Made by a program: the position numbers and the translations under genes. 64,000 nucleotides of DNA from the NCBI RefSeq assembly GCF_900457465.1, contig NZ_UAUU01000008.1, positions 372,001 to 436,000 of the forward strand, given 5' to 3'. Source of the DNA: Sphingobacterium multivorum (GTDB lineage: Bacteria > Bacteroidota > Bacteroidia > Sphingobacteriales > Sphingobacteriaceae). Below, piece after piece: positions 6,753 through 28,657 of the stretch (position 1 is the stretch's first letter; the number at the start of each line of letters is the position of its first letter). The notes beneath the pieces are model-generated. The model worked only from the letters and a program-made list of their open reading frames with translations. It was not told the DNA's origin and searched no databases.

Positions 6753-6881
6753 TTTACCATGAATAAATTAGTTGGTACCTCTTGAATATAACGCCATAAT
6801 TTTATTTATTTTTAAATTCAAAAAAATAAACGACATTTGGACATTTATTATTTAAGTCCAATTCGCCTTTCAATTCCGTCT

Positions 6882-7754
6882 ATGATATTAAGAGAAGTCA
6901 CACCGCTATCCGATAAAGATTGTTTCATGGTATTTGCCAGAAAGAAGTCACGTTTTGATTTTCCAATTCATGTACATTCAGAATTTGAACTCAACTTCAT
7001 TGAAAATGCTGCTGGCGCACAACGCATCGTAGGGGACAGTATAGAGGAAATCGATGAACTTGAATTAACACTGATCGCAAATGCGAATCTGGAGCACGGG
7101 TGGTTTGATCACAAATGTCAGTCTACCAATATTTCGGAGATCACCATACAGTTCCAGCCAGATTTATTTGGTGAAACACTGCTCAATAAAAATCAATTTC
7201 GTTCGATTAAACAATTGTTCGAAAAAGCGGTGTACGGCGTGACGTTCAGTATGCAAACAATTTTGGTTGTACAGGAAGCCATAAAAAAGCTCTCCCATGA
7301 AAAAGACGGTTTCTATTCTGTCGTTGGTTTGTATGATATCCTATTTAAGTTGTCGCAGGATGAAAATATGAGGGAACTCTGCAGCCGTTCTTTCCATAGT
7401 AGTACCGGAAAACACGATAGTCGTCGTGTCGAAAAAGTATTGCGTTACCTTTCTAAAAATTATCAGAAAGAAGTGTCTCTCGGTGAAGCGGCAGATCTGA
7501 TTGGGATGACGGATGTGTCTTTAAGTCGATTTCTTAAACAACGTACGGGCAGAACTTTTGTCGATACCCTAAATGATATTCGCTTGGGACACGCCAGCCG
7601 CATGCTTGTCGATACAACACACAGTATTGCCGAAATCGCATTATTGTCGGGGTTTAACAATCTGTCCAATTTTAATCGGATCTTTATGAAGAAAAAGGGA
7701 GCAACTCCAACGGACTTCCGGAATAAATACCGAAATTCAAAATTCTATTTGTGA
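6882..7754 (+). CDS. AraC-family transcriptional regulator
   Basis: About 290 residues from ATG at 6882. The open frame extends back to a TTG at 6837, but MILREVTPLSDKDCF is the usual start of this Bacteroidota subgroup. The N-terminal half is a cupin-like sensor (FDFPIHVHSEFELNFIE). The C-terminal third, about residues 190-285, holds two helix-turn-helix motifs typical of AraC, with LGEAADLIGMTDVSLSRFLK and IAEIALLSGFNNLSNFNRIF. It is codirectional with, and 180 bases upstream of, the mannan operon, so it is the best candidate for its regulator. That link is an inference; the ligand could be a manno-oligosaccharide. Confidence 0.9.
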   Translation: MILREVTPLSDKDCFMVFARKKSRFDFPIHVHSEFELNFIENAAGAQRIVGDSIEEIDELELTLIANANLEHGWFDHKCQSTNISEITIQFQPDLFGETLLNKNQFRSIKQLFEKAVYGVTFSMQTILVVQEAIKKLSHEKDGFYSVVGLYDILFKLSQDENMRELCSRSFHSSTGKHDSRRVEKVLRYLSKNYQKEVSLGEAADLIGMTDVSLSRFLKQRTGRTFVDTLNDIRLGHASRMLVDTTHSIAEIALLSGFNNLSNFNRIFMKKKGATPTDFRNKYRNSKFYL

Positions 7755-7795: not shown

Positions 7796-7881
7796 CTCAC
7801 TTTAAAAAGTCATGAAAGCCATTGGTTGAAATAGCATAAGAAGAAGATAAAAAAGTATTATCCTTGAATATGCATTCTCCT

Positions 7882-7889
7882 TAGTTTTG
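7882..7889 (+). promoter_or_regulatory. Putative -7 promoter element for the mannan operon
   Basis: TAGTTTTG matches the Bacteroidota -7 consensus TAnnTTTG and lies 48 bases before the SusC ATG at 7937. A TTG at 7864-7866 could serve as the -33 element, though the 15-base spacing is shorter than usual. No other match is closer to the gene. Confidence 0.45.
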
Positions 7890-7936: not shown

Positions 7937-10900
7937 ATGATCAAGAAAATCTTTTATGCCTGTATGGTTGCTGGCCTTACTCCGATGCTTACTTTTGCCC
8001 AGAAACTGCAGCTATCGGACAGGTAATTAATCAACAAATCAATTTACCAATAGCCGGTGCGACAGTGCGCAGTGGCGCAGGAAAAACTGCGCTGACAGAC
8101 GAGAAGGGAAATTACCAACTTGAGGTCAGTGTAGGGGATAATCTCTATGTATCGTTTCTAGGTATGGAGACTCGTACTTTAAAAGTCACCACTCGGGAGT
8201 CAATCAAAGTTTTTCTAAATCCGAAATCGGATGTCTTGGACGAGGTCGTCGTCGTAGGTTACGGCAAAGTGAAAAAAAGAGATCTATCCGGAGCCGTAAG
8301 CCAAGTGAAGGCTGCTGATATTTTGGCGGGAAATCCCGCTCCCAGTATCAACCAGGCGCTACAGGGACGTATGGCAGGCGTTACAGTCAACCAGAATGAT
8401 GGCGCTCCTGGCGCAGGTGTTTCTATTACCATACGGGGAACGAACTCCTTCTCAACAAATTCACAGCCCCTCTATATTGTTGATGGAATTCCCTTTGACA
8501 TGGCTTCTACACCAGCGAGCAGTGCCAATGAAAATATTAACCAAACCGCTAATGCGCTTGCATCGATCAATCCCAATGATATTGAATCGATCGAAGTGTT
8601 AAAAGACGCTTCCGCTACAGCTATCTATGGCTCAAGGGGCGCAAATGGGGTGGTATTGATTACAACAAAGCGAGGTGAAAATGGAAACGAAAGGTTGAGC
8701 TAAATGCTAATTTTGGAATGGCCACACTTGGACGGAAAGTCAAAATGCTCGGACCTTTCGATTATGCATCTTATATTAACGAACAGGCTGTAAATAGTAA
8801 AAATTATGAAGGAGTGGATTATCAGCTATTACCTTATCCGGGCACCTGGTCCTATCCGACAATAAACGGCCAGCCGGTAACGACATCGGGAAAATATCAG
8901 CCCTCACCGGAAGATTTTTTAAATCAGGGGCTGCGTACCGATCAGTATGGTAATCAGACATTGGTGCAAGGGGCTGACTGGCAGGATGAAATTTATCAAA
9001 ATGGATTTTCCCAAGAATATAATCTTAGTGTATCAGGTGGCAGTGAAAAAGGTTGGCACATGTTTTCAGGAAATTTTCTGAATCAGGGTGGAACTATAAA
9101 AAACTCAGATTACCAACGCGTTGCCCTACGTACTAATATCGGTCGAAAAGTGAGGTCTTGGCTTGAACTGGGTGCCAATATCAACTATACAAATGGACTC
9201 ACGAATTTTGCGAAATCAAATGCATACGATTACGGGATTATTCGTTCGGCATTGATATTTCCTGTGACTTATGGCCCTGACATGAGTACCATAGAGTCGG
9301 ATCAGCTGAACTGGTTGGCTTCCAACCCGGGCGTTTATGTCAATACAGCGAAGGATCAGCTGCGGGCTAACAATGTTTTCAGTTCGTCGTACGCAAGTGT
9401 CAAGCTATTACCATTCTTAACCTTCCGCCAGAACTTGGGATTTTCGTACTCCAATAATAACCGAAATACGTATTATAACCGCAATACGCAGGAGGGAAGA
9501 ACGCCAAAAAATGGAAGTGCCGGACAGAGTGACAATTGGTACCAGAGTCTAACGAGTGAATCCTTGCTAACTTTTGATAAAACTTTTCAGCAAGTTCATA
9601 GCCTAAATGCGGTAGCAGGTTTTACCTATGAGCAGGCAAATTACTCGGCCAAATCCATGACAGCTACCAATTTTCCGAATGATATTACAGGCGAGTTTGA
9701 TATGGCTGCGGGCTTAAATCCAGGCCCGTTGGTGAGTAGCCGTGGGCGGACGCAGCTGGCTTCCGTGTTAGCTAGGGCAAATTATTCATACAAAGGTAAG
9801 TACATCGCTACAGCATCTTTTCGCCGTGACGGTTCGAGTCGATTGACCGAAGGACAGAAATTTGCCAATTTTCTCTCCGGAGCACTGGCCTGGAGAATCT
9901 CTGAGGAGCAATTCGTGAAAAATCTTGGTGTTTTAAATGATCTAAAATTGCGTGCAAGTTATGGGCGTACGGGTAATCAGGGCGTCAATGCGTATCAGAC
10001 AAGAGCTTATCTGGCCGTAGCCAACTATCCTTTGGGCGGAGCGCTTAGCAGTGGTTTTGCGGAGGTAGACTGGCGTGGTGCATTAAATAAAACTCTCAAA
10101 TGGGAGACCACAGACCAGTATAACCTCGGATTGGACATGGCTTTTCTAAATAACCGTATCCAATTTACCATCGATGCATATTATAAAAAGACCAACGACC
10201 TGTTGCAGAATGTAAATATTGCTTCAAGCAACGGAATGAGAACACAGTGGGTCAATTCGGGATATGTCACCAATAAGGGGCTTGAGTTAACAGGTAAATT
10301 CGTTGCTGTTGACCGCGATGCCTTTAAATGGAATATCGATGCTAATATCTCATTCAATCGGAATGCAATCGGTGGCCTTGCAGCAGATCGCTTTGCCGAA
10401 CGGTTATGGTACAATGCCGATAATATCTTTATCCAGCGAAATGGCATGCCGATAGGTTCTATGTTCGGTTATATCGAAGATGGCTTTTACGATAATGAAG
10501 CCGAAGTTCGTGCAGATCAGACCTATGCTAACGCCAGCAATGCCGTTGTGCGGTCCAAACTGGGCGAAATTAAATACCGCGACTTGAATGGTGATGGTCA
10601 AATTACAGCTAGTGACCGTACAATAATCGGAAATACAAATCCAGATTTCGTTTTTGGTCTGACCAATAATTTTAAATATAAGGATTTTACGCTCGGTTTC
10701 TTCTGGCAGGGATCTATCGGTAACGATATTTTCAATGGCAACCTGATCGATATGAAAATGGCCAATTTGGGTAATATCACACAGGATATTTATAACACGC
10801 GCTGGACGGAAGAAAACAATGAAAACGCTTTATGGCCTAAAGCGGTCTCCACGTACAACCGTACCATGTTAACTTCGGATCGTTATGTTGAGAATGGCTC

Positions 10901-11132
10901 TTATGTTCGGCTAAAGAACGTCAATCTGGGTTATACATTTAAGATACCTTTTAAAGGGCTTAATTCGCTTTATCTCTATGCAAGTGCGACCAATCTTTTG
11001 ACTATCACGGACTATAGCTGGTTCGACCCGGATGTAAATGCATTTGGTGGTGACGCTTCGCGAAAAGGGGTGGATATTTATTCTTACCCAAGCAGCAGAA
11101 CTTTCTCACTGGGAATTAAAGCCGATTTTTAA
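7937..11132 (+). CDS. SusC-like TonB-dependent receptor of the mannan locus (two frameshifts)
   Basis: Outer-membrane TonB-dependent transporter, about 1065 residues, without an STN domain. The signal peptide is MIKKIFYACMVAGLTPML; a carboxypeptidase-regulatory-like domain follows (IAGATVRSGAGKTALTDEKG), then the SusC hallmark DEVVVVGYGKV, the plug with IEVLKDASATAIYGSRGANG and the barrel ending TFSLGIKADF. Two single-base losses break the frame: near 8004 (AAA before CTGCAG) and near 8690 (AAA before GGTTGAG). Adding one A at each joins the frames smoothly. It is the first gene of the mannan operon and should import manno-oligosaccharides with its SusD partner. Confidence 0.92.
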
Positions 11133-11139
11133 CCTAATT

Positions 11140-12923
11140 ATGATGATCATGACTACTAAAAATTACAAACAATATATAAAATATGCCTTATTGGCATCGA
11201 TCAGTCTTGCGGGATTAAGTTCATGTGAGAAAATGCTCGAAGAAAAAAAGTTTGATTTTATAGATCCGCAAGATATCCCGGATTCGGATGAAGGGGTCAA
11301 CCAATGGGTTGTAGGAACTTATAGCAAACTGCTTGACGATATGTTTCGCTGGAACCTTTTTTCCACCAGCACTGGAATTTGACTGTGATTACATGACTGG
11401 ACCGGATTGGTCATTTGGAACTTTGGGTGCAGGAAATTTTCAGAACAATGAATATACTTCTGCTATGTGGGAAAAGCCTTATGCCATTATTCATCGGGCA
11501 AACTTAGCGCTAGAAAATATCGAACCCATGACCAAAGCTTCGGAAGCAGCCAAAAACAACGGGATCGGTGAGCTCTATTTTCTAAAGGCTTATTCTTACT
11601 TTCTTTTGGTACGTGCCTTTGGCGAAGTGCCCATCCGTAATGCTTCCGTCAACTCCGGTGCCGATCTCAATCAGCCACGCCAGCCGATCAGTAAGGTGTA
11701 TGAGCATATCATCGAATTGCTTACCAAGGCCGAAGGATTGCTCTATAAAAACACGGATAGCAAATTTCAGGAAGGGCGAGCTTCAGCAGGAGCGGCCGCG
11801 TCCTTATTGGCAAAAGTTTATGTCACCATGGCTTCAGGATCTTTGGCATCAGGCAACGTTACAGTAAGAGGAGGGCAGCCTTACAGCATGAATGGCAGTG
11901 AAAAGGTGTACACCAATCCTGTATCTTTTGTGGTTTCTAAAAAGGTAGTTGCCGGTTATGAAGGAATTAATGCAAAAGAGTATTTTGGTAAAGCACGTGA
12001 CAAGGCGCTGCAGGTCATTAATGGGGAGTTTTGGTAATTATAGTTTGCTGAGCTATGATAACCTCTGGTCGCGTGCCAATAGAAATAAAACCGAACATAT
12101 ATGGACTTTACAGTCTATGTCTGCTGATGAAAAGTATGGGGTCACTTTTTCACAAGGTTATAATGGAACCTTCAATGATCAAGGCAACATACAGACCGGG
12201 CTATGGTGGGGCATGCGCGATCACTGGTATAAATTGTTTGAAAGTAAAGATTTGCGCGTGGTAAAAGGGGTGATTCACCGCTGGATCAGACAAGGAGATG
12301 ATTCCAGCTGGGGTGGCGGATCGTATTACCCGAATAACGAAGAGTATACGAACAAAGCAAAGGGCTATACCGATGATAAGGGTAATTGGGTACCGCCGGT
12401 AGCACCGTTTAATGACGGCGCACAATACCGAAGTGAAAAATCACCGGCCTTTTTGGCTTATCTCACAAAATATAGTGATGTGAGCAACAATAAGCTGGAA
12501 CGTACAGATGCACCATGGTATTTCCTTCGATTTGCGGATGTGTTACTCATCTATGCAGAGGCTGCCAATGAGGCAGACAACAGTACCGCAGCACGTACAT
12601 TGGCCTTGGCAAAGCTCAATCAGGTACGCGAAAGAAGCAATGCGACGCCCCGTAGACTCATTGGAGATGGAAATATCGATAATCAAAGCGGATTCCGCTC
12701 TGCAGTGCTAGAGGAGAGGGCAATGGAATTTGCACTGGAAGGCGACCGCCGCTGGGATTTGATCCGTTGGGGGATTTACCTTGATGTCATGAATAAAATT
12801 GGTGGAACCGATGAGGTGGGGGTTGTGAAAATACGCACTGAAAAGCATTTGCTTTACCCAATCCCCAATTCTGAAGTGGGCGTCAATACCACAATCACTT
12901 CAAATAATCCCGGTTGGAACTAA
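11140..12923 (+). CDS. SusD-like glycan-binding lipoprotein of the mannan locus (two frameshifts)
   Basis: RagB/SusD family lipoprotein, about 593 residues. Lipobox ASISLAGLSSC lies near residue 25, then SusD signatures such as ELYFLKAYSYFLLVRAFGEVP, LRFADVLLIYAEAANEA and the C-terminal LEGDRRWDLIRWG. Frame changes near 11352 (six T where five fit) and near 12032 (TTTT where TTT fits) are both single-base insertions, and the protein reads on normally across them. It follows the SusC gene by 7 bases. The N-terminus could begin at any of the ATGs at 11140, 11143 or 11149. Confidence 0.9.
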
Positions 12924-12946
12924 CGTAAACCTAAATTTGAATAACC

Positions 12947-14101
12947 ATGAAATTATTAAATCAATCCATATTATTTACCATATTGTCAGGTTACCTTTCC
13001 CTAGGAATGATCTCCTGCCAGAAGGATATTGTTAACTATAACGACGGCTATGACGATCAGTTGAGCTCAGATGGCCCACCTGTTATCGAAAAAGTCTCAA
13101 CAGCAGCAGATCTCAATGCGACAATTACCAGTGCAGCGCTTACAGATATGATCGTCTTACAGGGTAATAATCTTGCTGAGCTTAAGTCCATAAAATTAAA
13201 CGATGTGGAGGTAGACCTAGCGACGGTCTATGCTGTCAGATCCCGTATTACGTTACCTATACCGCGTATCGTTCCGACTGAGGTAAATAATAAGGTCACT
13301 GTTGAGACGGCAAAAGGAATTACGGAATTTCCTTTTGAAGTAAAAATTCCCAATCTGGTGATTGAAGGGCTATACAATGAGTTTATTGCTGCTGGAGATA
13401 CGGCCATTCTCGTAGGTAAATATTTGGATCTCTATAAATTGGATGTATTGGAGGGAAAATTCTTACTTAATAACACTGAAATCAAACCTCTTCGCAGTGT
13501 CGCAGACTCTGTCTATTTTATTTTTCCTTCCAGTACGGCCGATGGTGCAACGCTATCGTTTTCAAGCCCACTGATTGAGGTGCCGAGACAAGTAAAATTT
13601 AGAGAGAAAGGAATTTCCATGCTGGATATCAAATCTTTGTCCGCCTACGTTACCGATGGAAAAGCAAGCGGTGACCCGGCAATTTTGCCCGGCTTTGATC
13701 GCTTTTTGCGGATCCGTCAATCTTTCGGTGCTTGGTCCTGGAACGGTATTTTCTGGTCAGGTTTTGATTTGAATGAAGCTGCGGTATTGGCCAATCCCAA
13801 AGATTACTATGTCAAATTTGAGATCAACACCAAAAGTACGGCTTCGATTAGCCAGGGGAATTTTATATTGGGCGGCGACAGACAGGAGACACGTTACAAT
13901 CCTGCCGAGAATGGTGCCCTGAATACGTATGGCCAATGGAAGACGATGCGCGTTGATTTGACAGAGTTTTATAAAGATGCCTCCCAGGGTAATGGGACCT
14001 ATCTGAAAACGGGTTGGAATACCTTTGTTTTCTCTTACCAACCTACGGTCGATGTCAATGACGACTTCAGCGTGTGCAATTTCAGGATCGTTAAAAAATA
14101 G
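12947..14101 (+). CDS. Surface glycan-binding protein, SGBP-B type
   Basis: Intact 384-residue lipoprotein (GMISC near residue 24). After the lipobox come IPT/TIG-like immunoglobulin folds, about residues 45-220 (PPVIEKVSTAADLN and similar beta-rich segments). The C-terminal domain, about 225-384, is the XBD type described for surface glycan-binding proteins of polysaccharide loci and is rich in Trp and Tyr (FGAWSWNGIFWSGFDL). Such proteins hold the polysaccharide at the cell surface for the SusCD complex. Its place right after SusD is the usual one. The precise glycan is inferred from the enzymes downstream. Confidence 0.85.
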   Translation: MKLLNQSILFTILSGYLSLGMISCQKDIVNYNDGYDDQLSSDGPPVIEKVSTAADLNATITSAALTDMIVLQGNNLAELKSIKLNDVEVDLATVYAVRSRITLPIPRIVPTEVNNKVTVETAKGITEFPFEVKIPNLVIEGLYNEFIAAGDTAILVGKYLDLYKLDVLEGKFLLNNTEIKPLRSVADSVYFIFPSSTADGATLSFSSPLIEVPRQVKFREKGISMLDIKSLSAYVTDGKASGDPAILPGFDRFLRIRQSFGAWSWNGIFWSGFDLNEAAVLANPKDYYVKFEINTKSTASISQGNFILGGDRQETRYNPAENGALNTYGQWKTMRVDLTEFYKDASQGNGTYLKTGWNTFVFSYQPTVDVNDDFSVCNFRIVKK

Positions 14102-14109
14102 GAGCACAG

Positions 14110-15096
14110 TTGAAAAGATATGTATACTGCATACTGATGGTAACTATGTTGCTGACGGTGGCCTGTCGATCTGCATGGATCAACCCCAAGCCTAATTCCA
14201 AAACAGTTGTCGCCAGGCACGGTCAGCTCCGTGTATCGGGTACAGCGCTTGTCGATGCGCACGCCGATACGCTGGCTCTTCATGGTGTCAGCCTGGGCTG
14301 GCACAACTGGTGGCCGCGCTTTTATACTGCCGAGACCATCAATTGGCTTAAAAAAGACTGGAATGTTCAGGTGGTCCGTGCAGCTATCGGTGTAGAGCCT
14401 GACCAGGCTTACTTACAAAATCCTGAGGCAGCGCTCAAGCAATTATATGCCGTGGTCGATGCGGCAATAGCAGCGGGCGTATATGTGATTGTGGATTGGC
14501 ATGCACACCATCTGCATACGCCGCAGGCAAAGGAATTCTTTCGCACTGTAGCGAGCAAGTACGGGCGTTATCCAAATGTCATCTATGAGATATTCAATGA
14601 ACCCATGGAGACAAGCTGGGACGAAATTCAAGCCTATGCAAAGGAAGTGATCCCCGTCATTAGGGCCATAGACCCAGATAATATCATTTTGGTCGGATGC
14701 CCCAATTGGGATCAGGATATACACCTGGTCGCTGATAAGCCTATCGAAGGATTCAGCAACCTGATGTATACAGTACACTTCTATGCAGGTACACATAAGC
14801 AGTTTCTACGTGACCGTGCTGATTATGCCCTGGCCAAAGGTATTCCGATTTTTGTGTCGGAATGTGCAGGGATGAATGCCGATGGTGACGGACCGATAGA
14901 TCAAAAGGAATGGACAATCTGGAAGGAATGGATGGCTCTGCATCAAATCAGCTGGATAGCCTGGTCTATCGCTGATAAAAATGAAAGCTGCTCCATGATT
15001 GCGGATCAGCAGGTGCCGGCGAATGGCTGGTCTGACAAGCAGCTCAAGCCTTGGGGAAAAATGGTGAGACAAGATTTAAAAACGATCAATAAATGA
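14110..15096 (+). CDS. Glycoside hydrolase family 5 endo-glycanase
   Basis: 328-residue GH5 enzyme with a lipoprotein-like N-terminus (LMVTMLLTVAC), starting with TTG at 14110. The TIM-barrel motifs are clear: VDWHAHH, then IYEIFNEPM with Glu164 as acid/base and IFVSECAG with Glu251 as nucleophile. The sequence around the first motif (AKEFFRTVASKYGRYPNV) is most like the subfamily 2 beta-1,4-glucanases. Between a mannan-binding protein and mannan enzymes it probably attacks glucomannan, either as a glucanase or a mannanase; sequence alone does not settle which. Its TGA overlaps the ATG of the next gene, so the two are translationally coupled. Confidence 0.88.
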   Translation: MKRYVYCILMVTMLLTVACRSAWINPKPNSKTVVARHGQLRVSGTALVDAHADTLALHGVSLGWHNWWPRFYTAETINWLKKDWNVQVVRAAIGVEPDQAYLQNPEAALKQLYAVVDAAIAAGVYVIVDWHAHHLHTPQAKEFFRTVASKYGRYPNVIYEIFNEPMETSWDEIQAYAKEVIPVIRAIDPDNIILVGCPNWDQDIHLVADKPIEGFSNLMYTVHFYAGTHKQFLRDRADYALAKGIPIFVSECAGMNADGDGPIDQKEWTIWKEWMALHQISWIAWSIADKNESCSMIADQQVPANGWSDKQLKPWGKMVRQDLKTINK

Positions 15097-16877
15097 GCAA
15101 TTCTATAAAAACTGCCCTGTTAATCTCGTTGTGCGGAGCAGCATTCCTACTAGAATGTCACGCACAGATGCAGCCTAAAAATAGCGCAACACATGATTTT
15201 GGTACCGATTGGAGGTTTCATGCCGGCGAGGGAAGGGACAGCAGCTGGAACACGAAAGATTACCGGGATAAACACTGGGCAACCGTCGTATCGAACAAAC
15301 CGCTCAAAGAACAGGGGAAATTGTTGGAACAGGGCTTTGGCTGGTATCGCAAGCAGCTGGCTTTTCCTGCCCAGATGCAGCAAAAAATTGTCGAGGCTGA
15401 AGGTGTTGAAATTGATCTCGGTAAATTTGCCGCCTGTGAGGAAGTGTATGTCAATGGTCATTTAGTTGGTAAAACGGGAGAATTTCCACATAATTTCGCT
15501 GGCTACTTTGATCATGAACGCCGGTATTTCGTCCCCTTGGAAGTGCTTGACCTTACCGGTGAAAATGTGATTGCTATCAAATTTTTTGATGGTTGGAGTG
15601 CCAATGGCGGCTTCTTAAATGCAGCGGTTATGCAGGTACAGCCGGCCTCAACAGTGGATAAACTGAAGCTGAAAGTCAATGTCCTGGATGACGATTATAT
15701 TTTCCTGGGCAAAGATAGTATCGCTATAGCGCCAACGATAGAAAATAGAGGTAAAAAATCACTGAAGGCAAGCTTGAAAATTTCGTTGACGACGGATGCG
15801 TACAAACCGATCAAATCACAGGAATTGAAGGTCGATATTCCTGCGCATGCAACAGCTCCTTTGGGTACCTTTGGATTAAAGAATGTCGAACCGGGATTTT
15901 ACCGCTATAAGGTGTCTGTGGAGATCGACGGTGGACACAAACTGGAAGAACAGGTCAATGTGGGCTATGAGCCTGAAAAGATTGCTTCGCCAAACGATGA
16001 GGCAACAGATTTTGATAAATTCTGGAAAGCAAATAGAGCCCAGCTCGCTAACATAAAGCCTGATTATCAGTTGATGTTGATTCCGGAGCAGTCCAAGCTG
16101 GATTATGAAATGTACCATGTGTCCATGCGTTCGCTGGATAATGAGCTTATTATGGGCTACTACGCTAAACCTAAAAAAGCAGGAAAGCACCCAGTCATTG
16201 TCGAATATATGGGCTATGGATCAAAACCTTATTTTCCGAATCAGAGCTGGGATGGATTCGCCTATTTTGTACTTTCCATCCGGGGACAGGCATTGAATGA
16301 AAAATCAAATCATTTCGGTACTTGGTTTACCTATGGCATAGACAGTAAAGAAACGTATTACTATCGCGGGGCGTTTATGGATGTGCTGCGTGCACTGGAT
16401 TTTGTCAGCTCAAGAGATGAAATTGATGGTGAACGTATTGCTGTGCGTGGATCGAGTCAGGGGGGTGCATTGTCGGTTGTTGCGGCATCGCTGGATTCAC
16501 GTGTAAAAGCACTGGCAATTGGTATTCCTTTTCTATCGGATTTTCAGGATTATTTCAACATTGCACCCTGGCCAAAATCGGATGTAGATCACTACAGGGC
16601 TCAACACCCGGAACTGAGCTGGAAACAGGTGTACAAGACCCTTTCTTATTTTGATATTAAAAATCTGGCTTCCCGTATCCGGGTGCCATTGGTCATGGGA
16701 ATCGGGGTGCAGGATAATGTTTGCCCGCCACATATCAATTTTGCAGCGTATAATCAGGTGAAAAGTGAAAAATCCTGGATGGCTTTTCCATTGCATGGAC
16801 ATAGCACCGGAAATGCATTTCATGTCGCGGGATTGGACCTCTTTAGACGTGTCCTCCATGTTGAACAATCAAGATAA
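15093..16877 (+). CDS. Acetyl esterase of the AXE1/CE7 family with N-terminal accessory domain
   Basis: 594-residue secreted protein with signal peptide MSNSIKTALLISLCGAAF. Residues about 35-190 look like a galactose-binding-like beta-sandwich (WRFHAGEG, WYRKQL, VYVNGHLVGKTG). A linker follows, and residues about 300-590 form the CE7 alpha/beta hydrolase. The nucleophile motif is RGSSQGG with Ser455, then GVQDNVCPP supplies the Asp and FPLHGHSTG the His. CE7 enzymes remove acetyl groups from oligosaccharides. In this operon the likely role is de-acetylation of acetylated mannan or glucomannan. The extra N-terminal domain is not in the classical 320-residue CE7 enzymes. Confidence 0.87.
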   Translation: MSNSIKTALLISLCGAAFLLECHAQMQPKNSATHDFGTDWRFHAGEGRDSSWNTKDYRDKHWATVVSNKPLKEQGKLLEQGFGWYRKQLAFPAQMQQKIVEAEGVEIDLGKFAACEEVYVNGHLVGKTGEFPHNFAGYFDHERRYFVPLEVLDLTGENVIAIKFFDGWSANGGFLNAAVMQVQPASTVDKLKLKVNVLDDDYIFLGKDSIAIAPTIENRGKKSLKASLKISLTTDAYKPIKSQELKVDIPAHATAPLGTFGLKNVEPGFYRYKVSVEIDGGHKLEEQVNVGYEPEKIASPNDEATDFDKFWKANRAQLANIKPDYQLMLIPEQSKLDYEMYHVSMRSLDNELIMGYYAKPKKAGKHPVIVEYMGYGSKPYFPNQSWDGFAYFVLSIRGQALNEKSNHFGTWFTYGIDSKETYYYRGAFMDVLRALDFVSSRDEIDGERIAVRGSSQGGALSVVAASLDSRVKALAIGIPFLSDFQDYFNIAPWPKSDVDHYRAQHPELSWKQVYKTLSYFDIKNLASRIRVPLVMGIGVQDNVCPPHINFAAYNQVKSEKSWMAFPLHGHSTGNAFHVAGLDLFRRVLHVEQSR

Positions 16878-16919
16878 ATAAAACATAAAAAAGAACTTAC
16901 TTTATATTTAATTCGAATC

Positions 16920-18089
16920 ATGAGTACACTATTTGAACAACGTCTAAAAGATGTTGAAGCAGATCACTTTGCCCTATTAGAAAGAAAAAACCATCCTGTG
17001 AAGGAGCACAACGGTATTTACCAGCGCTATGAACATCCTGTCTTGACAGCAGCTCATACCCCGCTTTTCTGGCGGTATGATTTAAATGAGCAAAGCAATC
17101 CATTTTTGATGGAACGATTTGGTATTAACGGAACTTTTAATGCCGGTGCGATCAAGTGGAACGATAAATACGTATTGGTCGTACGGGTCGAAGGAAATGA
17201 CCGTAAGTCCTTCTTTGCAATAGCTGAAAGCGCAAACGGAATTGACAATTTTAAGTTCTGGGATTTTCCGGTCGATCTTCCCGAGACGAATGATCCGGAT
17301 ACAAATGTCTATGATATGCGCCTGACGGCCCATGAAGATGGCTGGATTTATGGTATTTTCTGTACCGAACGGAAAGATCCGGCAGCGGCTTCCGGAGACC
17401 TTTCTTCGGCAGTGGCCGCAGCAGGAATCGTGCGTACAAAAGATCTAAAACACTGGGAAAGGCTACCGGATCTGAGATCCAAGAGCCAACAGCGAAATGT
17501 GGTTCTGCACCCCGAATTTGTCGACGGTAAATATGCCTTATATACCCGCCCGCAGGATGGATTTATCGATACCGGAAGTGGCGGCGGTATTGGCTGGGGC
17601 TTGGTAGATAGCATGGAGAATGCAATAGTATACGAGGAAAGAATCATAAACCATCGGTATTACCACACGATCAAAGAGCTGAAAAATGGAGAAGGGCCAG
17701 CACCTATCAAAACAGACAAAGGCTGGTTGCACCTCGCGCACGGCGTGCGCGCATGTGCTGCTGGACTGCGCTATGTCCTGTATGTCTATCTGACTGATCT
17801 TGCTGCGCCAGAAAAACTGATTGCCGAACCGGCAGGTCATCTGATGGCTCCAATGGGTGAGGAACGCGTTGGTGATGTCTCAAACGTGCTTTTTAGTAAC
17901 GGCTGGATTGCAGATGATGATGGTACAGTTTATCTTTATTATGCCTCGAGTGATACCCGTATGCATGTGGCCGTATCTTCGGTTGAAAAACTGTTGGACT
18001 ACTGCTTGTCTACAACTGGAGATGGCATGCGATCAAAAACATCGGTTGAAACACTTGTCGGGATTATTTCAAAGAACTTAGCACAATAA
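16920..18089 (+). CDS. 4-O-beta-D-mannosyl-D-glucose phosphorylase (GH130)
   Basis: 389 residues, no signal peptide, so cytoplasmic. The sequence is closely like characterised mannosylglucose phosphorylases of GH130 subfamily 1, including the N-terminal [20 protein letters not shown] and the catalytic [14 protein letters not shown] with Asp132 as proton donor. The enzyme splits beta-1,4-mannosyl-glucose with phosphate into mannose 1-phosphate and glucose. Its substrate is made by the epimerase encoded two genes downstream, and the GPH symporter between them can import mannobiose. Family assignment and reaction are well supported; kinetics cannot be inferred. Confidence 0.93.
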
Positions 18090-18116
18090 AATGTTTAAAT
18101 TTATTGCAAAACGAGA

Positions 18117-19513
18117 ATGATGAGTAAAACGGAGCGTATTACATTAAAGGAAAAAATCGGTTATGGACTAGGGGACGCTGCTTCGTCCATGTTCTGGAAA
18201 TTGTTTGGCATGTATCTCATGTTCTTCTATACAGATATATTCGGGATGGAAGCAAAAGTGGTCGGCACCATGTTTCTGGTCACGCGCGTCTGGGATTCTT
18301 TGTTTGATCCTATTATTGGTGTACTGTCCGATCGTACACAATCGAAATGGGGTAAATTCAGACCTTACCTACTGTACGTTGCGGTACCATTTGGTGTAAT
18401 TGGTGTGTTCACGTTTTATACCCCTGCACTCGCTGAAAGTGGAAAAGTTGTGTATGCTTATCTTACTTATTCGGTCATGATGATGGTTTATTCGGCTATT
18501 AATGTTCCCTATGCGTCTTTATTGGGGGTAATAAGTTCGTCGCCCAAAACCAGGAGTGTGCTGGCCACCTTCCGAATGAGCTTTGCATATCTTGGCAGTT
18601 TCGTAACGTTATTGCTCTTCAATCCAATGGTCAATTTTTTCAGTGGCCACAGGCAGGATATTCAGGCCCAGCAGCAGGGCTGGGTGATGGCAGTGGCTGT
18701 TATAGCGCTCTGTTCCGTCGTTCTATTTCTGCTCTGTTTTGCTTGGACACGCGAACGGGTCCAACCAGTAACGGATAGTAAAAGTAGTTTAAAGCAGGAT
18801 GTCAGGGATCTGCTGAATAATAGTCCTTGGTGGATTTTATTGGGAGCGGGAGTCTCCACGTTGGTCTTCAATTCGGTAAGGGATGGCGCAGCACTGTACT
18901 ATTTCAAATATTACGTACACGAAGAAAATTATGGCCAGATCGTACTTCTGAACATTCCATTTGTATTGAGTGGACTCTACCTTGCATTGGGCAGGCCGCC
19001 AATATTCTAGGTGTTATTTTGGCGGCTCCAGTAAGCAACAAAATTGGAAAGAAAAATACATTTATCTTAACCATGCTCTTGGCAACTGTTGGCAGCATAC
19101 TGTTTTACTGGCTCGACAAAAGCCAGGTATGGGAAATTTTTGCATTGCAGGTCATCATCAGTATCTGCGCTGGAGCGGTATTCCCATTACTCTGGTCGAT
19201 GTATGCCGACTGCGTGGATTATTCAGAGCTGAAGACAGGCAATAGGGCAACAGGTCTAATTTTTAGCTCCTCTTCCATGAGCCAAAAATTGGGCTGGGCA
19301 CTTGGAACAGCGGTAACGGGCTGGCTCCTGGCTTATTTTGGTTTCCAGGCCAATCAACTACAGTCCGAGGAGACGCTTAGTGGTATAAAAATGTTTTTGA
19401 GCCTATTTCCGGCAATAGGAACACTCTTATCAATCCTGTTTATCAGCTTTTATCCGCTGACAGAAAAGAGGATGCAAAAGATTACTGCGGAGCTTGAGGA
19501 GCGTCGCAATTAA
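18117..19513 (+). CDS. GPH/MFS-type sugar:cation symporter (one frameshift)
   Basis: About 465 residues with 12 predicted membrane helices, of the glycoside-pentoside-hexuronide:cation symporter family (MelB-like). The N-terminal KIGYGLGDAASSMFWKLFG and DPIIGVLSDRTQSKWGKFRP are family signatures. Two overlapping frames meet near 18993, at LGQAANILGV: a GGG run needs one more G. Both halves are otherwise well preserved. It lies between the GH130 phosphorylase and the epimerase and most likely brings mannobiose and related disaccharides across the inner membrane. Confidence 0.88.
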
Positions 19514-19537
19514 TCTAAAGTGTAATGAAGAAAAGCA

Positions 19538-20704
19538 ATGAAAGGATTTAAAGAAGAAATTGAAAATAATATCCTTCCGTATTGGATGGATAAAATGGTT
19601 GATACGGAGCATGGTGGTTTTTATGGCCGTATCGACGGTGACAATGTACTGGATAGGATGGCCAACAAAGGCGTCGTCATGCATGCCCGGATCCTGTGGA
19701 CATTTGCTGCGTCCTACCGTGTGCTGGGCCACAGTGCCTACCGGCAGATCGCAGAACGCGCATACCTGTACCTCAGGGACTACTTTATGGATAAAGAATA
19801 TGGCGGAGTATTTGGGAACTTGATTTCCGAGGCCGCCCCGTAAACCCGCAAAAAACAGACGTATGCACAAGGGTTTGCGCTCTATGCGTTTTCGGAATAT
19901 TACCGTGCAACGGGCTGTACTGAAGCCCTGGACTATGCAAAGAAACAATTTTATCAGATCGAACGCTGTAAAGACGATGAATTGGGTGGTTACTGGGAGG
20001 CATTTACCGAGGATTGGCAGCCTATTGCCGATATGCGTCTCAGCGAGAAAGATGAAAACGAAGCTAAAACCATGAATACGCATCTCCATATTTTAGAACC
20101 TTATACCAACCTTCTTCGGGTATGGATCGATGCAGATTTGGTAAAGGCACATACTGATTTGATATCCTTATTCCTGGAACGTATATATAGTAAGGCTACC
20201 GGACACCTGCAGCTTTTCTTTGATGCAAAATGGCAGGTAAAAGGTCAGATGCAATCCTTTGGACATGATATTGAAGCTGCCTGGCTACTCTTGGAGGCGG
20301 TCAAAGTACTGGGTGATCCGGATCTGGAGGAAAAAGTGAAAACTGTCATTCCTCATATTGCTCATGCAGCATTGGAAGGGATCTTGCCCGATGGTAGTCT
20401 CGCTTATGAAAGAAACAATGCACATTGGGACCGCGAACGCCATTGGTGGGTACAGGCCGAAGCTGTGCTCGGATTTTCATACCTAGGGAAGCTGCTGAAT
20501 GACAAGCTCTATCAGGAAAAGGCAGAAGGTATATGGGCCTATATCCGGTCGAATCTAATTGATAGCGAGGAGGGCGAGTGGTATTGGAGCAGGCTTGAGA
20601 ACGGGGAAGTAAATAGAGCTGAAGATAAGGCAGGCTTCTGGAAGTGCCCTTATCATAATGGACGCATGTGTCTGGAAATGATCGAAAATTTTGGAATAAA
20701 ATGA
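19538..20704 (+). CDS. Cellobiose 2-epimerase (AGE family, two compensating frameshifts)
   Basis: About 388 residues of the N-acylglucosamine 2-epimerase/cellobiose 2-epimerase fold, cytoplasmic. Signatures include HGGFYGRIDGDN near residue 25, NTHLHILEPYTNLLRVW in the middle, RHWWVQAEAVLGF and the C-terminal FWKCPYHNGRMCLEM. The frame is lost near 19812 (one T missing) and regained near 19851 (one A too many). Within that stretch the alternative frame reads QTYAQGFALYAFSEYYRA, which fits the family. The enzyme converts beta-1,4-mannobiose to mannosyl-glucose, feeding the GH130 phosphorylase. Its TGA overlaps the ATG of the next gene. Confidence 0.9.
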
Positions 20705-21837
20705 TGAACAATAACGTTGTTTTCTACTTGGTCTTGGTAGCAATGCTCTTGAACTATAGTCTTTCGGCGCAGACCAATGTCCCTATTGACCGTATAGCCA
20801 CTAGCGAAACTGTCGCATTGTACAAATACTTAAAATCAGTCCAATCGCAAGGAAAGGTTCTTTTAGGCCAGCAGGATGCGCTTTGCTATGGAAGGCATTG
20901 GAAGGGAGAGCCAGACCGTAGTGATATAAAAGAAGTGACAGGAAGTCACCCAGTAGTGCTGGGCCTCGATTTTCAGCCGTTGACTCATGAGGACAAGGTC
21001 TATCGGGAAAGTGAAACCAAAAGACTGGTCAATGTGGTCAAGGACATGTATCGTAGGGGGGGAATTATTACGTTCTCCTGGCACATGTCAAATCCTGTAA
21101 ACGGTGGCTCCTATGAATGGAAAAATAACCCACAGCTCGCGGTGAGAGAAATTTTACCCGGAGGCAGGTCAAATGCTGCCTATCAGTCTTACCTACGTCG
21201 AATAGGTGCTTTCTTAGCGCAATGTAAAGGATCGAGGGGCGAGGCTATTCCGATTATTTTCAGACCTTTTCATGAGTTCGATGGTGATTGGTTCTGGTGG
21301 GGGAAGGGGCATGCCACTCCGGCGGAATTTATTCATTTATGGCGCTATACAGTTAATTATCTTCGGCAAGATCTGGGCATACACCAGTTGCTCTTTGCAT
21401 TCTCTCCGGACTGTAAGTTTCGGGACCGGACGGAATATCTTGCGCAATTTCCGGGCGATGATTATGTCGATATTTTAGGTATGGACAATTATTGGGATTT
21501 TCGCCCCGATGGTGCAAATGATCCAGCAGCAGCAGCGTTCAAGATGGGAATTGTTTCGGCTATAGCCCAGGAAAAAAGTAAGATTGCGGCAATGACCGAA
21601 ACGGGGCTCGAACGGATTACCGATCCAAACTGGTTTACACAGATTTTACAACCGATATTGGCAAAATGGCCACTGGCTTATTGCATGCTCTGGCGAAACG
21701 CAGACGATATTCCGACTCATTATTATGTACCTACCAAAGATCATCCGGCAGCAGCAGATTTTAAGAAATTTTGCCAGTCAGCGGATATCATTCTTTTAAA
21801 CAACAATAAACTTATTTATAATGCAGCAGCAAAATGA
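20701..21837 (+). CDS. Beta-mannanase, glycoside hydrolase family 26 (first copy)
   Basis: About 379 residues from ATG at 20701, with signal peptide ending near YSLSAQ. GH26 TIM barrel: ITFSWHMSNPVNGG, then FRPFHEFDGDWFWWG with Glu192 as acid/base and AAMTETGLE with Glu300 as nucleophile. The C-terminal YCMLWRNADD and THYYVPTKDHP are also family-typical. It hydrolyses beta-1,4-mannan, probably in the periplasm or at the surface. It overlaps the epimerase by 4 bases and the second GH26 by 4 bases, so these three genes are translationally coupled. Confidence 0.92.
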   Translation: MMNNNVVFYLVLVAMLLNYSLSAQTNVPIDRIATSETVALYKYLKSVQSQGKVLLGQQDALCYGRHWKGEPDRSDIKEVTGSHPVVLGLDFQPLTHEDKVYRESETKRLVNVVKDMYRRGGIITFSWHMSNPVNGGSYEWKNNPQLAVREILPGGRSNAAYQSYLRRIGAFLAQCKGSRGEAIPIIFRPFHEFDGDWFWWGKGHATPAEFIHLWRYTVNYLRQDLGIHQLLFAFSPDCKFRDRTEYLAQFPGDDYVDILGMDNYWDFRPDGANDPAAAAFKMGIVSAIAQEKSKIAAMTETGLERITDPNWFTQILQPILAKWPLAYCMLWRNADDIPTHYYVPTKDHPAAADFKKFCQSADIILLNNNKLIYNAAAK

Positions 21838-22982
21838 GAAAGACTAAAATAAAAAGATATCTTGGACAGCTAATCCTATGTGGTATATTTACCGTAGCTG
21901 TATTCAGCCTCCGGGGGCAACAGCCGGCAGACCTTCATGCGACCGAAGAAACTAAAGATCTGTATCAAACAATCAATTCAAGGCGTGCAAAAGGGATTTC
22001 TGTAGGACATCAGGATGCGCTGGCCTATGGCCATGGCTGGTATAAAGTGAAAGGGCGCAGTGATCTGAAGGATGTGGCTGGTAAGCACCCCACTGTCATT
22101 GGCTGGGAAATAGGGGATATTGAACTTGGTAAACCGTACAATTTAGATTCCGTGTATTTTGACGACATGCGCCGCTACATCGTAGATACGCAAAAACGTG
22201 GCGGTATAACGAGCTTGAGCTGGCATGCCAATAACATCGTGTCAGGCAAAAACGCCTGGGATTGTGCGCAGGACACTGTCGTTCGCTCCATTCTTCCGGC
22301 AGGAAGCAACCACATAAAATACTTAAAATGGTTAGACCGGACCGCGGAGTTTTTGTTAAGTCTAAAGGATAATCAAGGGACTTTAATTCCGGTCGTGCTG
22401 AGACCTTATCACGAACATACCGGATCTTGGTTTTGGTGGGGGGCTAAACAGTGTACACCCGAGGAATATAAGGCGCTCTGGAAAATGACCGTCGATTACT
22501 TTCAGCAGAAACACGGTATCCATCACCTTCTTTACTGTTATTCGCCATCTGAAACCGAAAATGAAGCTGAGTTCTTAACACGGTATCCCGGCGATGCTTA
22601 TGTGGACCTGGTCGCATTTGACTGTTATGTACCCGGAGATGGTACGCCCAAAGATATTGAAAAATACAAAATTGCTATGGCAAAAAATATTGCCATTGTA
22701 ACGGACTATGCCGCCAGATCCGGGAAAATTCCGACAATCGGAGAAACGGGGCTCGAAGGTGTCAAAGATCCGACTTATTTTACCCAGGTGGTTTACCCTT
22801 TGGTCAAAGATAAGGGCTTGGCCTGGATATTATTCTGGCGGAATGCTTATGAAAAGGATAAACCAAATCACTATTATGTGCCCTTCAAAGGTCACCCTGC
22901 TGCTGGGGATTTAAAGAAATTTACCAGAAATCCGCGGTATTGTTTTAATGCCAAGAGGTGTACATTCAGTTGTATATGTTAA
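21834..22982 (+). CDS. Beta-mannanase or mannobiohydrolase, glycoside hydrolase family 26 (second copy)
   Basis: 382 residues with a hydrophobic signal segment (LILCGIFTVAVFSLRGQ). GH26 motifs: SLSWHANNIVSG, LRPYHEHTGSWFWWG with Glu194 as acid/base, IGETGLEG with Glu304 as nucleophile, and NHYYVPFKGHP near the end. It is clearly a paralogue of the preceding gene but differs around the active site (HEHTGSW versus HEFDGDW, VGHQDALAYGHGW versus LGQQDALCYGRHW), which suggests different chain-length preferences. The last about 20 residues, after KKFTRNP, do not look family-like and may be read out of frame. End of the mannan operon. Confidence 0.9.
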   Translation: MRKTKIKRYLGQLILCGIFTVAVFSLRGQQPADLHATEETKDLYQTINSRRAKGISVGHQDALAYGHGWYKVKGRSDLKDVAGKHPTVIGWEIGDIELGKPYNLDSVYFDDMRRYIVDTQKRGGITSLSWHANNIVSGKNAWDCAQDTVVRSILPAGSNHIKYLKWLDRTAEFLLSLKDNQGTLIPVVLRPYHEHTGSWFWWGAKQCTPEEYKALWKMTVDYFQQKHGIHHLLYCYSPSETENEAEFLTRYPGDAYVDLVAFDCYVPGDGTPKDIEKYKIAMAKNIAIVTDYAARSGKIPTIGETGLEGVKDPTYFTQVVYPLVKDKGLAWILFWRNAYEKDKPNHYYVPFKGHPAAGDLKKFTRNPRYCFNAKRCTFSCIC

Positions 22983-23079: not shown

Positions 23080-24621
23080 ATGTTAAGGAAAGTCATATTT
23101 TATGGAATGGTACTGATTGTGGGAGTTTCCATAGCTGCATGTTCAAAAGATGAAAAAACAGAATCAGAGTCAGGGGAGGTTATCGAAACCGGTACTGCGA
23201 TAAACATTAGCTCGATTTCAAAAAGTGGTGCGGTTGAAGGTAGCCAGGAGACTGGAGCGGACGACGATGATCTTATAGCAAACTCCACTTTCAACAGTAC
23301 CGTAAAAATAAACTACGATGGCAATTCGGCCACTATTGAAAATCCAGCTTCCGGGGTTACAGTCACTCAAACTGGAGCTGATGTCGTTGTAAACTCTTCT
23401 GCAAGCGGTGTTGCCTATGAGTTAACAGGCTCAACAACAAGTGGATCATTCAAGATCTATTCGGATAAGAAATTCAAGGTTATCTTAAATGCGGTCTCTA
23501 TTACAAATAACGACGGCCCTGCAATCAATATTCAGTCTGGAAAGAGGGCATTTATCATACTTGCCGACGGGACGGAAAACAAACTTACAGATGCAGCTAG
23601 CTATGCAACATCTGCTGAAGATCAAAAAGGCACAATTTTTAGTGAAGGGCAATTGATATTTTCTGGGACCGGCACATTAACTATTTCTGGCAAAACGAAG
23701 CACGCCATAGCCAGTGATGATTATATACGCGTTGTGGAGGGTACGATCCAAGTTTCCGATGCTATTTCGGATGGCTTACACAGTAACGACGGTATTTATA
23801 TTGATGGCGGGAAATTAAATATCGTGGCAAATTCTGATGGTATTGAAGCTGAAAAAGGTCGGATTATTGTCAATGGAGGGGAAATTACCTTAAAAGTTGC
23901 TGACGATGGTATTGTTGCGTCCTATGAGGATGGGGACGAAACTATAATACCCGATGTGATTATAAATGGCGGAAAAATAAATATCGAAACCACTGGATCA
24001 GGTGGGGAGGGAATTGAGAGCAAGGCGACCCTTAGCATCAATAATGGTGAAATTTACATCAAAGCTATTGATGATGCGATCAACGCCGGGAAAGCAATTT
24101 ATATTAATGGAGGAACAATCGTAGCCTATAGTACCACAAACGATGGTATAGATTCCAATGGAACGATGACTATTACTGGAGGGCATATTTTTGCTATCGG
24201 TGCAAAGAGTCCAGAAGAAGGGTTCGATTGTGATAACAACACCTTTAAGATTACCGGAGGGCTTATGGTCGGCGTGGGAGGAGCCACAAGTTCTCCAACT
24301 GCAAGTGTTTCTACACAGCCCTCGGCAATTTTAAGTGGCGGTCAAGCTAGTCAGATATATAGTGTTCTTGACAAGGACAACAATGAGGTCCTGACATTTA
24401 AATCGCCTGTTTCTTTTTCAACATTACTGATCTCCAATGCTAGCTTTTCAGTAGGTGCATCCTACAAGCTCGTAAATGTATCTTCAGTTGCGGAAGCCAA
24501 TGCGTTTAACGGACTATACTTAAGTGGAACATTTAGCAATCCAACAGTTACCTCATCGTTTACATTATCAGCTATGGTCAGTAATTTAGGAGGAAACCTA
24601 GGACCGGGTGGAGGAAGATAG
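23080..24621 (+). CDS. Carbohydrate-binding beta-helix lipoprotein (Cthe_2159-type domain)
   Basis: 513 residues. The N-terminus is a lipoprotein signal (MVLIVGVSIAACSKD). From about residue 75 to 400 the protein is a series of short beta repeats built on Asp-Gly-Ile and Asn-Gly-Gly turns (SDGLHSNDGIYIDGG, SDGIEAEKGRIIVNGG, DDGIVAS, NDGIDSNG). This is the pattern of the carbohydrate-binding domain family whose prototype, Cthe_2159, is a right-handed beta-helix that binds acidic sugars and cellulose. The C-terminus ends in Gly-rich GGNLGPGGGR. It lies 97 bases after the mannan operon with its own likely promoter, so a link to mannan is possible but not shown. Confidence 0.8.
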   Translation: MLRKVIFYGMVLIVGVSIAACSKDEKTESESGEVIETGTAINISSISKSGAVEGSQETGADDDDLIANSTFNSTVKINYDGNSATIENPASGVTVTQTGADVVVNSSASGVAYELTGSTTSGSFKIYSDKKFKVILNAVSITNNDGPAINIQSGKRAFIILADGTENKLTDAASYATSAEDQKGTIFSEGQLIFSGTGTLTISGKTKHAIASDDYIRVVEGTIQVSDAISDGLHSNDGIYIDGGKLNIVANSDGIEAEKGRIIVNGGEITLKVADDGIVASYEDGDETIIPDVIINGGKINIETTGSGGEGIESKATLSINNGEIYIKAIDDAINAGKAIYINGGTIVAYSTTNDGIDSNGTMTITGGHIFAIGAKSPEEGFDCDNNTFKITGGLMVGVGGATSSPTASVSTQPSAILSGGQASQIYSVLDKDNNEVLTFKSPVSFSTLLISNASFSVGASYKLVNVSSVAEANAFNGLYLSGTFSNPTVTSSFTLSAMVSNLGGNLGPGGGR

Positions 24622-28379: not shown

Positions 28380-28657
28380 AATCAAAATTGTTAATAATTG
28401 TCGATTGCACAAATATAGACTAAAAATGGAAAATACCCTCGTAACCGAACAAAAGATTATTCAGGATGTCAAGGGCCCATTTTTTAGGTATATTTGCACC
28501 AGATCGAAGCTTTGCCATTAGAAAAAAGCTGCAAGAATTATTGAAAAATACAAGGCAATTCCTGCTGCAGGTCCTAGCGATAAAAAGGGCAGCAATAAGC
28601 TTAAAACAACTCAAAAATAGGGGAGTAATAATAACTCAGCCAAATGTAATGCACGAT

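What the first reader, a model, noticed from the sequence alone, without database searches (positions are those of the whole stretch)
7937..22982. Self-contained beta-mannan operon with the epimerase-phosphorylase route
One operon carries capture (SusC, SusD, SGBP), cleavage (GH5, two GH26), de-acetylation (CE7), inner-membrane uptake (GPH symporter), cellobiose 2-epimerase and mannosylglucose phosphorylase. The last three form the known mannobiose to mannosyl-glucose to mannose 1-phosphate plus glucose path. There is no alpha-galactosidase, beta-mannosidase or beta-glucosidase, and an esterase plus a GH5 is present. This points to acetylated glucomannan rather than galactomannan, which is an inference.
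Basis: partly seen in the sequence, partly recalled or inferred. Interest (0 to 1): 0.6.

Follow-up and report, generated by a model that had tools for sequence, protein, structure and literature searches.

The report
Ordinary bacterial glucomannan-eating operon
A bacterium related to Sphingobacterium carries a compact ten-gene set for taking in and digesting a plant cell-wall sugar polymer (most likely acetylated glucomannan) by a route already known from other bacteria; several of its genes look broken here, most likely only because of assembly errors.

Summary
The gene content is real: window 7937-22948 (+) holds SusC, SusD, SGBP, GH5, CE7, GH130, GPH symporter, epimerase, GH26a and GH26b, with an AraC gene upstream. 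The GH130 is 73% identical to the Bacteroides fragilis mannosylglucose phosphorylase and keeps its named active-site residues; the epimerase belongs with cellobiose 2-epimerases. The proposed route is well supported by sequence. Refinements: (1) five of the ten frames are cut by eight one-base indels; intact relatives, homopolymer context and purifying selection point to assembly error. (2) The GH5 is endoglucanase-like (GH5_2 type), not a mannanase; GH26b keeps the exo-loop of mannobiose-releasing enzymes, GH26a does not. This favours glucomannan. (3) The genome has a second mannan-type locus with its own GH130, symporter and epimerase, so 'self-contained' is unproven. Close analogues are published (Segatella copri PUL 7, B. 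cellulosilyticus MUL, B. ovatus, Muricauda). New member of a known kind; low interest.

The parts
6837..7754 (+). AraC-family regulator (305 aa; start codon uncertain), probable local regulator
   Evidence: Pfam HTH_18 4.7e-21; same place in six relatives
7846..7889 (+). Conserved blocks GATAAAAAAGTATTA (7846-7860) and TAGTTTTG (7882-7889) ahead of SusC: candidate promoter
   Evidence: Both identical in the seven aligned AraC-SusC gaps; sequence; the -7 element TAnnTTTG of Bacteroidota is recalled
7937..11132 (+). SusC-type TonB-dependent transporter; frame breaks near 8016 and 8689
   Evidence: Pfam Plug 3.7e-23 and barrel 1.9e-17 on the two large pieces; intact 1063-1065-aa relatives
11137..12923 (+). 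SusD-type lipoprotein; frame breaks near 11364 and 12028
   Evidence: Pfam SusD-like_3 2.4e-24 and SusD_RagB 3.9e-36 on the two large pieces
12947..14101 (+). Surface glycan-binding protein, lipoprotein
   Evidence: Pfam SGBP_B_XBD 3.1e-19; lipobox ISCQKD by eye
14110..15096 (+). GH5, endoglucanase-like (GH5_2 type), lipoprotein
   Evidence: Pfam Cellulase 4.2e-57; best solved relatives are cellulases/endoglucanases, e.g. 5i2u 3.4e-115; NEP and SE motifs and lipobox by eye
15093..16877 (+). CE7 acetyl esterase with about 300 extra N-terminal residues
   Evidence: Pfam AXE1 8.6e-64 at residues 301-577; GSSQG at 453
16920..18089 (+). GH130_1 4-O-beta-mannosyl-glucose phosphorylase
   Evidence: 281 of 385 aligned residues identical to 3was; N73, R94, Y130, D131, D344 kept
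18117..19513 (+). GPH-type (MFS_2) sugar symporter; frame break near 18988
   Evidence: Pfam MFS_2 1.5e-62 and 1.7e-42 on the two pieces
19538..20704 (+). Cellobiose 2-epimerase; a minus and a plus break near 19810 and 19844, with one TAA between
   Evidence: Best solved relatives are cellobiose 2-epimerases; reading with the stop left in
20716..21837 (+). GH26a beta-mannanase, secreted, without the exo-loop
   Evidence: Pfam Glyco_hydro_26 2.4e-45; CjMan26C about 1e-78; loop absent
21834..22948 (+). GH26b, mannobiose-releasing type; frame break near 22925 changes the last residues
   Evidence: Pfam Glyco_hydro_26 7.8e-44; 4zxo BoMan26A 4.8e-95; exo-loop kept

Best explanation
A Sphingobacterium-type beta-mannan utilisation locus, most likely for acetylated glucomannan. 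SusC/SusD and the SGBP capture and import the polymer or its pieces. CE7 removes acetyl groups. The GH5_2-type glucanase opens the chain at glucose-containing stretches. GH26a cuts mannan stretches and GH26b trims off mannobiose in the periplasm. The symporter takes the disaccharide into the cytoplasm, where the epimerase turns mannobiose into mannosyl-glucose and the GH130 splits that with phosphate into mannose 1-phosphate and glucose. Shown here: gene content, order, family, conserved residues, conservation under selection. Inferred: substrate, localisation, order of steps, control by the AraC protein.
For: Families. GH130: 281 of 385 residues identical to BfMGP, with N73, R94, Y130, D131 and D344 kept (residues named in PMC4264767 and PMC4599007, passages). 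Epimerase: nine solved relatives at E below 1e-60, all cellobiose 2-epimerases (intact L005 gene as query). GH26b: 4zxo 4.8e-95 and loop 2 kept. GH5: leading solved relatives are endoglucanases/cellulases. Ten-gene order intact in 5 of 6 relatives, the sixth lacking GH26b. dN/dS 0.017-0.050 against L005 in ten segments of six genes. Linkage elsewhere: 41 of 80 GH130 loci also hold symporter and epimerase, 32 of 80 also a GH26 (lower bounds, many loci are cut by contig ends). Published, partly biochemically tested analogues: PMC12704710, PMC13276840, PMC5217682, PMC9860051 (passages).
Against: No activity or induction data. By eye the GH5 lipoprotein lacks the acidic residues after the cysteine that SusD and SGBP have, so a surface endo-enzyme may be missing. 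The window copy as assembled has five broken frames. Galactomannan is not excluded: GH97 genes exist elsewhere, and exo-enzymes can lie outside such loci. BoMan26A, the nearest solved relative of GH26b, did not hydrolyse galactoglucomannan (abstract of PMC5217682), which does not favour galactose-rich acetylated mannans as its direct substrate.
Confidence: 0.82

Rival explanations
1. The locus is a general beta-mannan (galactomannan/galactoglucomannan) system, with galactose removed by an enzyme encoded elsewhere.
For: Similar loci respond to several mannans: B. ovatus to galacto- and glucomannans (abstract of PMC5217682), Muricauda most to galacto- and glucomannan (passage of PMC9860051). Two GH97 genes over cut-off lie elsewhere in the genome; whether they are alpha-galactosidases was not tested. 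In B. cellulosilyticus a GH36 outside the locus goes up on mannans.
Against: No GH36 or GH27 match in the whole genome; the GH5 is glucanase-like; an esterase is present.
Confidence: 0.25
2. The window's copy is a decaying pseudo-operon: the eight frameshifts are real.
For: Five of ten genes are interrupted.
Against: All eight indels are one base; in seven of eight the longer version has a run of three or more identical bases (my reading), though only 20% of the operon's bases lie in such runs. No in-frame stop and dN/dS of 0.017-0.050 in the ten segments scored (AraC, SusC, SusD, SGBP, GH130, symporter). At least four other genes of the window show frame changes against G087. Six relatives have intact frames. 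Real but recent breaks cannot be excluded without reads.
Confidence: 0.08
3. The operon does not work alone: chain opening at the surface is done by the GH26 lipoprotein of the second mannan-type locus on contig C9, and this operon processes the products.
For: The C9 locus has a GH26 with an apparent lipobox (TACTKADPATD); the GH5 here has no acidic residue in the first five positions after its cysteine in any of the seven sequences; both GH26 here have ordinary signal peptides by eye.
Against: Rules for surface export are not established for this genus and were not tested; the C9 locus has its own AraC, SusC/D, GH130, symporter and epimerase, as this one has.
Confidence: 0.25

Closest known systems
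Segatella copri PUL 7 with adjacent epimerase (PMC12704710; passages read)
   Same: SusC/D, GH26 enzymes, GH130 mannosylglucose phosphorylase, CE7 active on glucomannan products, epimerase; induced by glucomannan
   Different: It has a fused GH26-GH5_4 as surface enzyme and one GH26 without catalytic residues; here GH5 is a separate GH5_2-type protein and both GH26 keep their catalytic glutamates
Bacteroides cellulosilyticus MUL / PUL32 (PMC13276840 section 18 and passages; PMC13357471 passages)
   Same: Two GH26, GH5_2, CE7, GH130_1, MFS transporter, SusC/D; an epimerase also more abundant on mannan; CE7 with an extra N-terminal fold
   Different: Also has GH5_7 and GH3 in the locus; the epimerase was on another contig; in strain WH2 one GH26 has an internal binding module
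Bacteroides ovatus mannan PUL (PMC5217682; abstract and passages)
   Same: Periplasmic mannobiose-releasing GH26 (BoMan26A, best solved relative of GH26b) and a second GH26
   Different: Has GH36 alpha-galactosidase and a surface GH26; no GH5_2 or CE7 was seen in the passages I read
Muricauda sp. [quoted passage not shown] abstract and passages)
   Same: GH26 enzymes, GH5 glucanase, predicted esterase, GH130, symporter, AraC regulator
   Different: 22 induced proteins, GH27 alpha-galactosidase, GH5_26 rather than GH5_2 type

Membership tests
Bacteroidota SusC/D-type polysaccharide utilisation locus for beta-mannan | Adjacent SusC/SusD pair with co-directional mannan enzymes | tested here: met
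Bacteroidota SusC/D-type polysaccharide utilisation locus for beta-mannan | Induction by and growth on a beta-mannan | not testable with these tools
   needs culture and transcriptomics
GH130_1 mannosylglucose phosphorylase | Close match to BfMGP, Tyr-Asp pair and substrate-site residues | tested here: met
   281 of 385 identical; N73, R94, Y130, D131, D344 kept
GH130_1 mannosylglucose phosphorylase | Phosphorolysis of Man-beta-1,4-Glc | not testable with these tools
   needs assay
Cellobiose 2-epimerase | Best solved relatives are cellobiose, not N-acylglucosamine, 2-epimerases; active-site His/Arg/Trp kept | tested here: met
   the residue list (R66, H200, H259, W322, W385, H390 of the R. 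marinus enzyme) is recalled; the first part of the protein (about 150 residues) was scored only on the intact L005 gene
GH26 mannobiose-releasing type (BoMan26A/CjMan26C) | GH26b: loop 2 closing the site beyond subsite -2 and both catalytic Glu | tested here: met
   IELGKPYNLDSV against IELGGTHNLDKV in BoMan26A; both Glu kept
GH26 mannobiose-releasing type (BoMan26A/CjMan26C) | GH26a: same loop | tested here: not met
   GH26a has LTHEDKVYRESET at this place; both Glu kept
GH5_7 beta-mannanase | Nearest relatives are GH5_7 mannanases | tested here: not met
   39 solved relatives listed, the leading ones named endoglucanase or cellulase, none named mannanase
GH5_2 endo-beta-1,4-glucanase | Nearest relatives in GH5_2 | tested here: inconclusive
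   matches the 1a3h/2a3h enzyme among others, and PMC3526467 gives 2A3H as the GH5_2 representative; no subfamily model was available
CE7 mannan acetyl esterase | AXE1 domain with catalytic serine motif | tested here: met
   (8.6e-64); GSSQG at residue 453
CE7 mannan acetyl esterase | Deacetylation of glucomannan | not testable with these tools
   needs assay

The most novel reading that the evidence does not exclude
A glucomannan-only locus in which a GH5_2 glucanase, not an endo-mannanase, opens the chain, so that only glucose-containing mannans can be used, working beside a second, differently equipped mannan-type locus (GH26, GH30, DUF5060-GH5, esterase) in the same genome: two loci that share the epimerase-phosphorylase core but divide mannan types between them.
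Probability: 0.25. Interest if true: 0.35.

Novelty: new member of a known kind. Interest (0 to 1): 0.2.

Why it matters
It extends a mannan strategy described in gut and marine Bacteroidota to Sphingobacterium-type bacteria, gives a compact natural set of enzymes for acetylated glucomannan, and supplies a natural test of what GH5_2 enzymes do in mannan loci, a role that the B. cellulosilyticus paper left undrawn for lack of functional information (PMC13276840, passage). It also shows how assembly errors can make a probably working operon look broken.

Tried and rejected
Rejected: GH5 as mannanase. Not found: alpha-galactosidase of GH27 or GH36 in the genome, and GH94 phosphorylase; each of these three searches rang in at least one control genome. 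Rejected as unlikely: real pseudogenes. Rejected as operon member: the Cthe_2159-like gene at 23080-24621, present in G087 and G050 but not in the stretches fetched from the other four relatives. Led nowhere: plasmid search (no match), tRNA scan (none), promoter/terminator consensus scan, no excess over shuffles (33 promoter-like against 38.2 expected, 19 terminator-like against 16.1). A paper search for Sphingobacterium with mannan, PUL and GH26 returned one review on rapeseed meal, seen in the listing only. No structure prediction was run, since sequence matches were already strong; the exo or endo mode of GH26a therefore rests on loop sequence alone.

Rows dropped before counts: one search shows only plus-strand pieces between 6500 and 23200; and 62 matches under 40% of the query length or with E above 1e-15 were dropped; tblastn pieces of 70% identity or less and proteins covered by half or less were dropped; CE7, GH5, the epimerase, both GH26 and the first 27-residue SusC piece were not scored, and 24 bases were trimmed at broken ends (60 at the start of the second SusC piece). 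L005 and L128 come from the same record (contig length 198031) and are counted once. In one search four rows flagged BROKEN (o24, o28, o42, o44) are paralogous double hits, and o29 is interrupted by extra DNA in the same frame; these five are not counted as frame breaks.
Full report
WHAT IS THERE. The window is G000:C10:372001-436000 of a 5.98-Mb assembly in 11 contigs, 98.28% complete, 6.45% contamination. Its nearest named relative among the loci found is a Sphingobacterium sp. MAG (L005, GH130 92% identical). Between 7937 and about 22948 on the + strand lie SusC, SusD, a surface glycan-binding protein, GH5, CE7, GH130, a GPH-type symporter, a cellobiose 2-epimerase and two GH26 genes, each with a Pfam match well over cut-off. 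Gaps between neighbours are at most 42 bases. An AraC-family gene precedes them.

BROKEN FRAMES. As assembled, SusC, SusD, symporter, epimerase and the end of GH26b are interrupted. Against the intact copy in G087 (98.4% nucleotide identity over 15,197 aligned bases) the operon shows eight indels, each of one base, near 8016, 8689, 11364, 12028, 18988, 19810, 19844 and 22925, and no other indel inside the operon. In seven of the eight the longer version has a run of three or more identical bases (my reading), although only 20% of the bases of the operon lie in such runs. In ten ungapped segments against L005, from broken genes (SusC, SusD, symporter, both sides of a break) and unbroken ones (AraC, SGBP, GH130), there is no in-frame stop and dN/dS is 0.017-0.050; the other genes were not scored. 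At least four other genes of the window change frame against G087 (rows o23, o25, o26 and o48). The simplest reading is assembly error; recent real breaks cannot be excluded without reads.

CONSERVATION. Of 93 genomes of the genus searched (the window's own included), the large SusC piece (804 aa) matched at 75% or more over nearly its whole length in six others: G050, G087, G069, G086, G005, G060; the next best was 49%. In five of these six all ten genes and the AraC gene are present, with open frames and in the same order; G060 has all but GH26b. The gap between AraC and SusC holds two blocks identical in the seven sequences aligned, GATAAAAAAGTATTA and TAGTTTTG, the latter like the -7 element TAnnTTTG recalled for Bacteroidota.

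THE CATABOLIC CORE. The GH130 is identical to the B. fragilis mannosylglucose phosphorylase (3was) at 281 of 385 aligned residues, and keeps N73, D131 and D344 (mannose recognition; PMC4264767, passages), Y130 (marks GH130_1 and _2; same source) and R94 (contacts glucose; PMC4599007, passages). The epimerase of L005 matches nine solved proteins at E below 1e-60, all cellobiose 2-epimerases; the second part of the window's own gene puts the same nine ahead of the N-acylglucosamine 2-epimerases. Of 80 loci found by GH130 similarity, 41 also hold symporter and epimerase, and 32 these and a GH26; these are lower bounds, because many loci are cut by contig ends: of the 38 loci longer than 21 kb, 25 hold symporter and epimerase and 22 also GH26.

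THE DEPOLYMERASES. The GH5 matches solved endoglucanases and cellulases; none of the 39 listed relatives is named a mannanase. It is therefore GH5_2-like rather than GH5_7, although no subfamily model was run. Many characterised GH5_2 members are endo-beta-1,4-glucanases (PMC3526467, passages). It has a lipobox by eye in the seven genomes, but not the acidic residues after the cysteine that SusD (six relatives) and SGBP show, so whether it sits on the surface is open. GH26b is closest to BoMan26A (4zxo) and keeps loop 2 with the Asn-Leu-Asp of the exo-loop (loop described in PMC5217682, passages; BoMan26A itself still showed some endo action and did not hydrolyse galactoglucomannan, same source). 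GH26a is closest to CjMan26C overall but lacks that loop; both keep the two catalytic glutamates. The CE7 has the AXE1 domain after about 300 N-terminal residues; an extra N-terminal fold is also described for the B. cellulosilyticus CE7 (PMC13276840).

GENOME CONTEXT. A second mannan-type locus lies at C9:230407-249213: AraC, SusC, SusD, an unassigned lipoprotein, GH26 with lipobox, a GH5-like protein with DUF5060, a second GH26, a protein of unknown family, GH30, a CBM48-esterase gene in two pieces, GH130, symporter, epimerase (the symporter by 74% identity; the 400-residue unknown was not searched). No GH36, GH27 or GH94 match was found in the genome. GH3 (5 over cut-off), GH2 (10) and GH97 (2 over cut-off) genes exist elsewhere. 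So sugars that the epimerase-phosphorylase pair cannot handle could be hydrolysed by enzymes encoded elsewhere (inference).

COMPARISON WITH WHAT IS KNOWN. The enzyme set resembles published loci: S. copri PUL 7 with its adjacent epimerase, whose GH26A, CE7, epimerase and GH130 were tested biochemically and which is induced by glucomannan (PMC12704710, passages); the B. cellulosilyticus MUL with GH26A, GH26B, GH5_2, GH5_7, GH3, CE7 and GH130_1, abundant on konjac and spruce mannan (PMC13276840, section 18); B. ovatus (PMC5217682); Muricauda (PMC9860051). What differs is the exact combination and order: GH5_2 and CE7 with two GH26 and no GH5_7, GH3 or alpha-galactosidase. Among the 80 GH130 loci, three (L005, L006 Dysgonomonas hofstadii, L020) hold GH5_2, CE7, symporter, epimerase and GH26 together. 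I did not search PULDB, so an identical published prediction cannot be excluded.

VERDICT. A real, conserved and ordinary member of a known kind. Substrate: beta-mannan almost surely; acetylated glucomannan most likely (about 0.6, my estimate). Interest 0.2.

Noticed in passing
G000:C9:230407-249213 (L101:8407 to L102:7213): Second mannan-type locus with its own AraC, SusC/D, two GH26, DUF5060-GH5, GH30, esterase, GH130, symporter and epimerase; relatives of its GH5 and GH30 lie in the same locus as GH130 in L029, L049 and L065. What GH30 does there is unclear.
   Followed up: partly
window 27280-28412, 33616, 35399, 59270: Further frame changes against G087 outside the operon, so gene calls in this assembly need care.
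   Followed up: partly
window 23080-24621: Gene for a Cthe_2159-type carbohydrate-binding protein right after the operon; in two of six relatives at the same place.
   Followed up: partly
window 7846-7889: Two blocks identical in seven genomes ahead of SusC: candidate promoter and regulator site.
   Followed up: partly
window 24745-25200: Reverse-strand fragment that reads like UvrA (by eye, no family search); in G087 extra DNA lies between the homologous parts.
   Followed up: no
G000:C10:678390-679301 and G000:C8:143158-143916: A further GH130 with one stop inside and a GH97 with two stops inside: possibly the same kind of assembly error.
   Followed up: no
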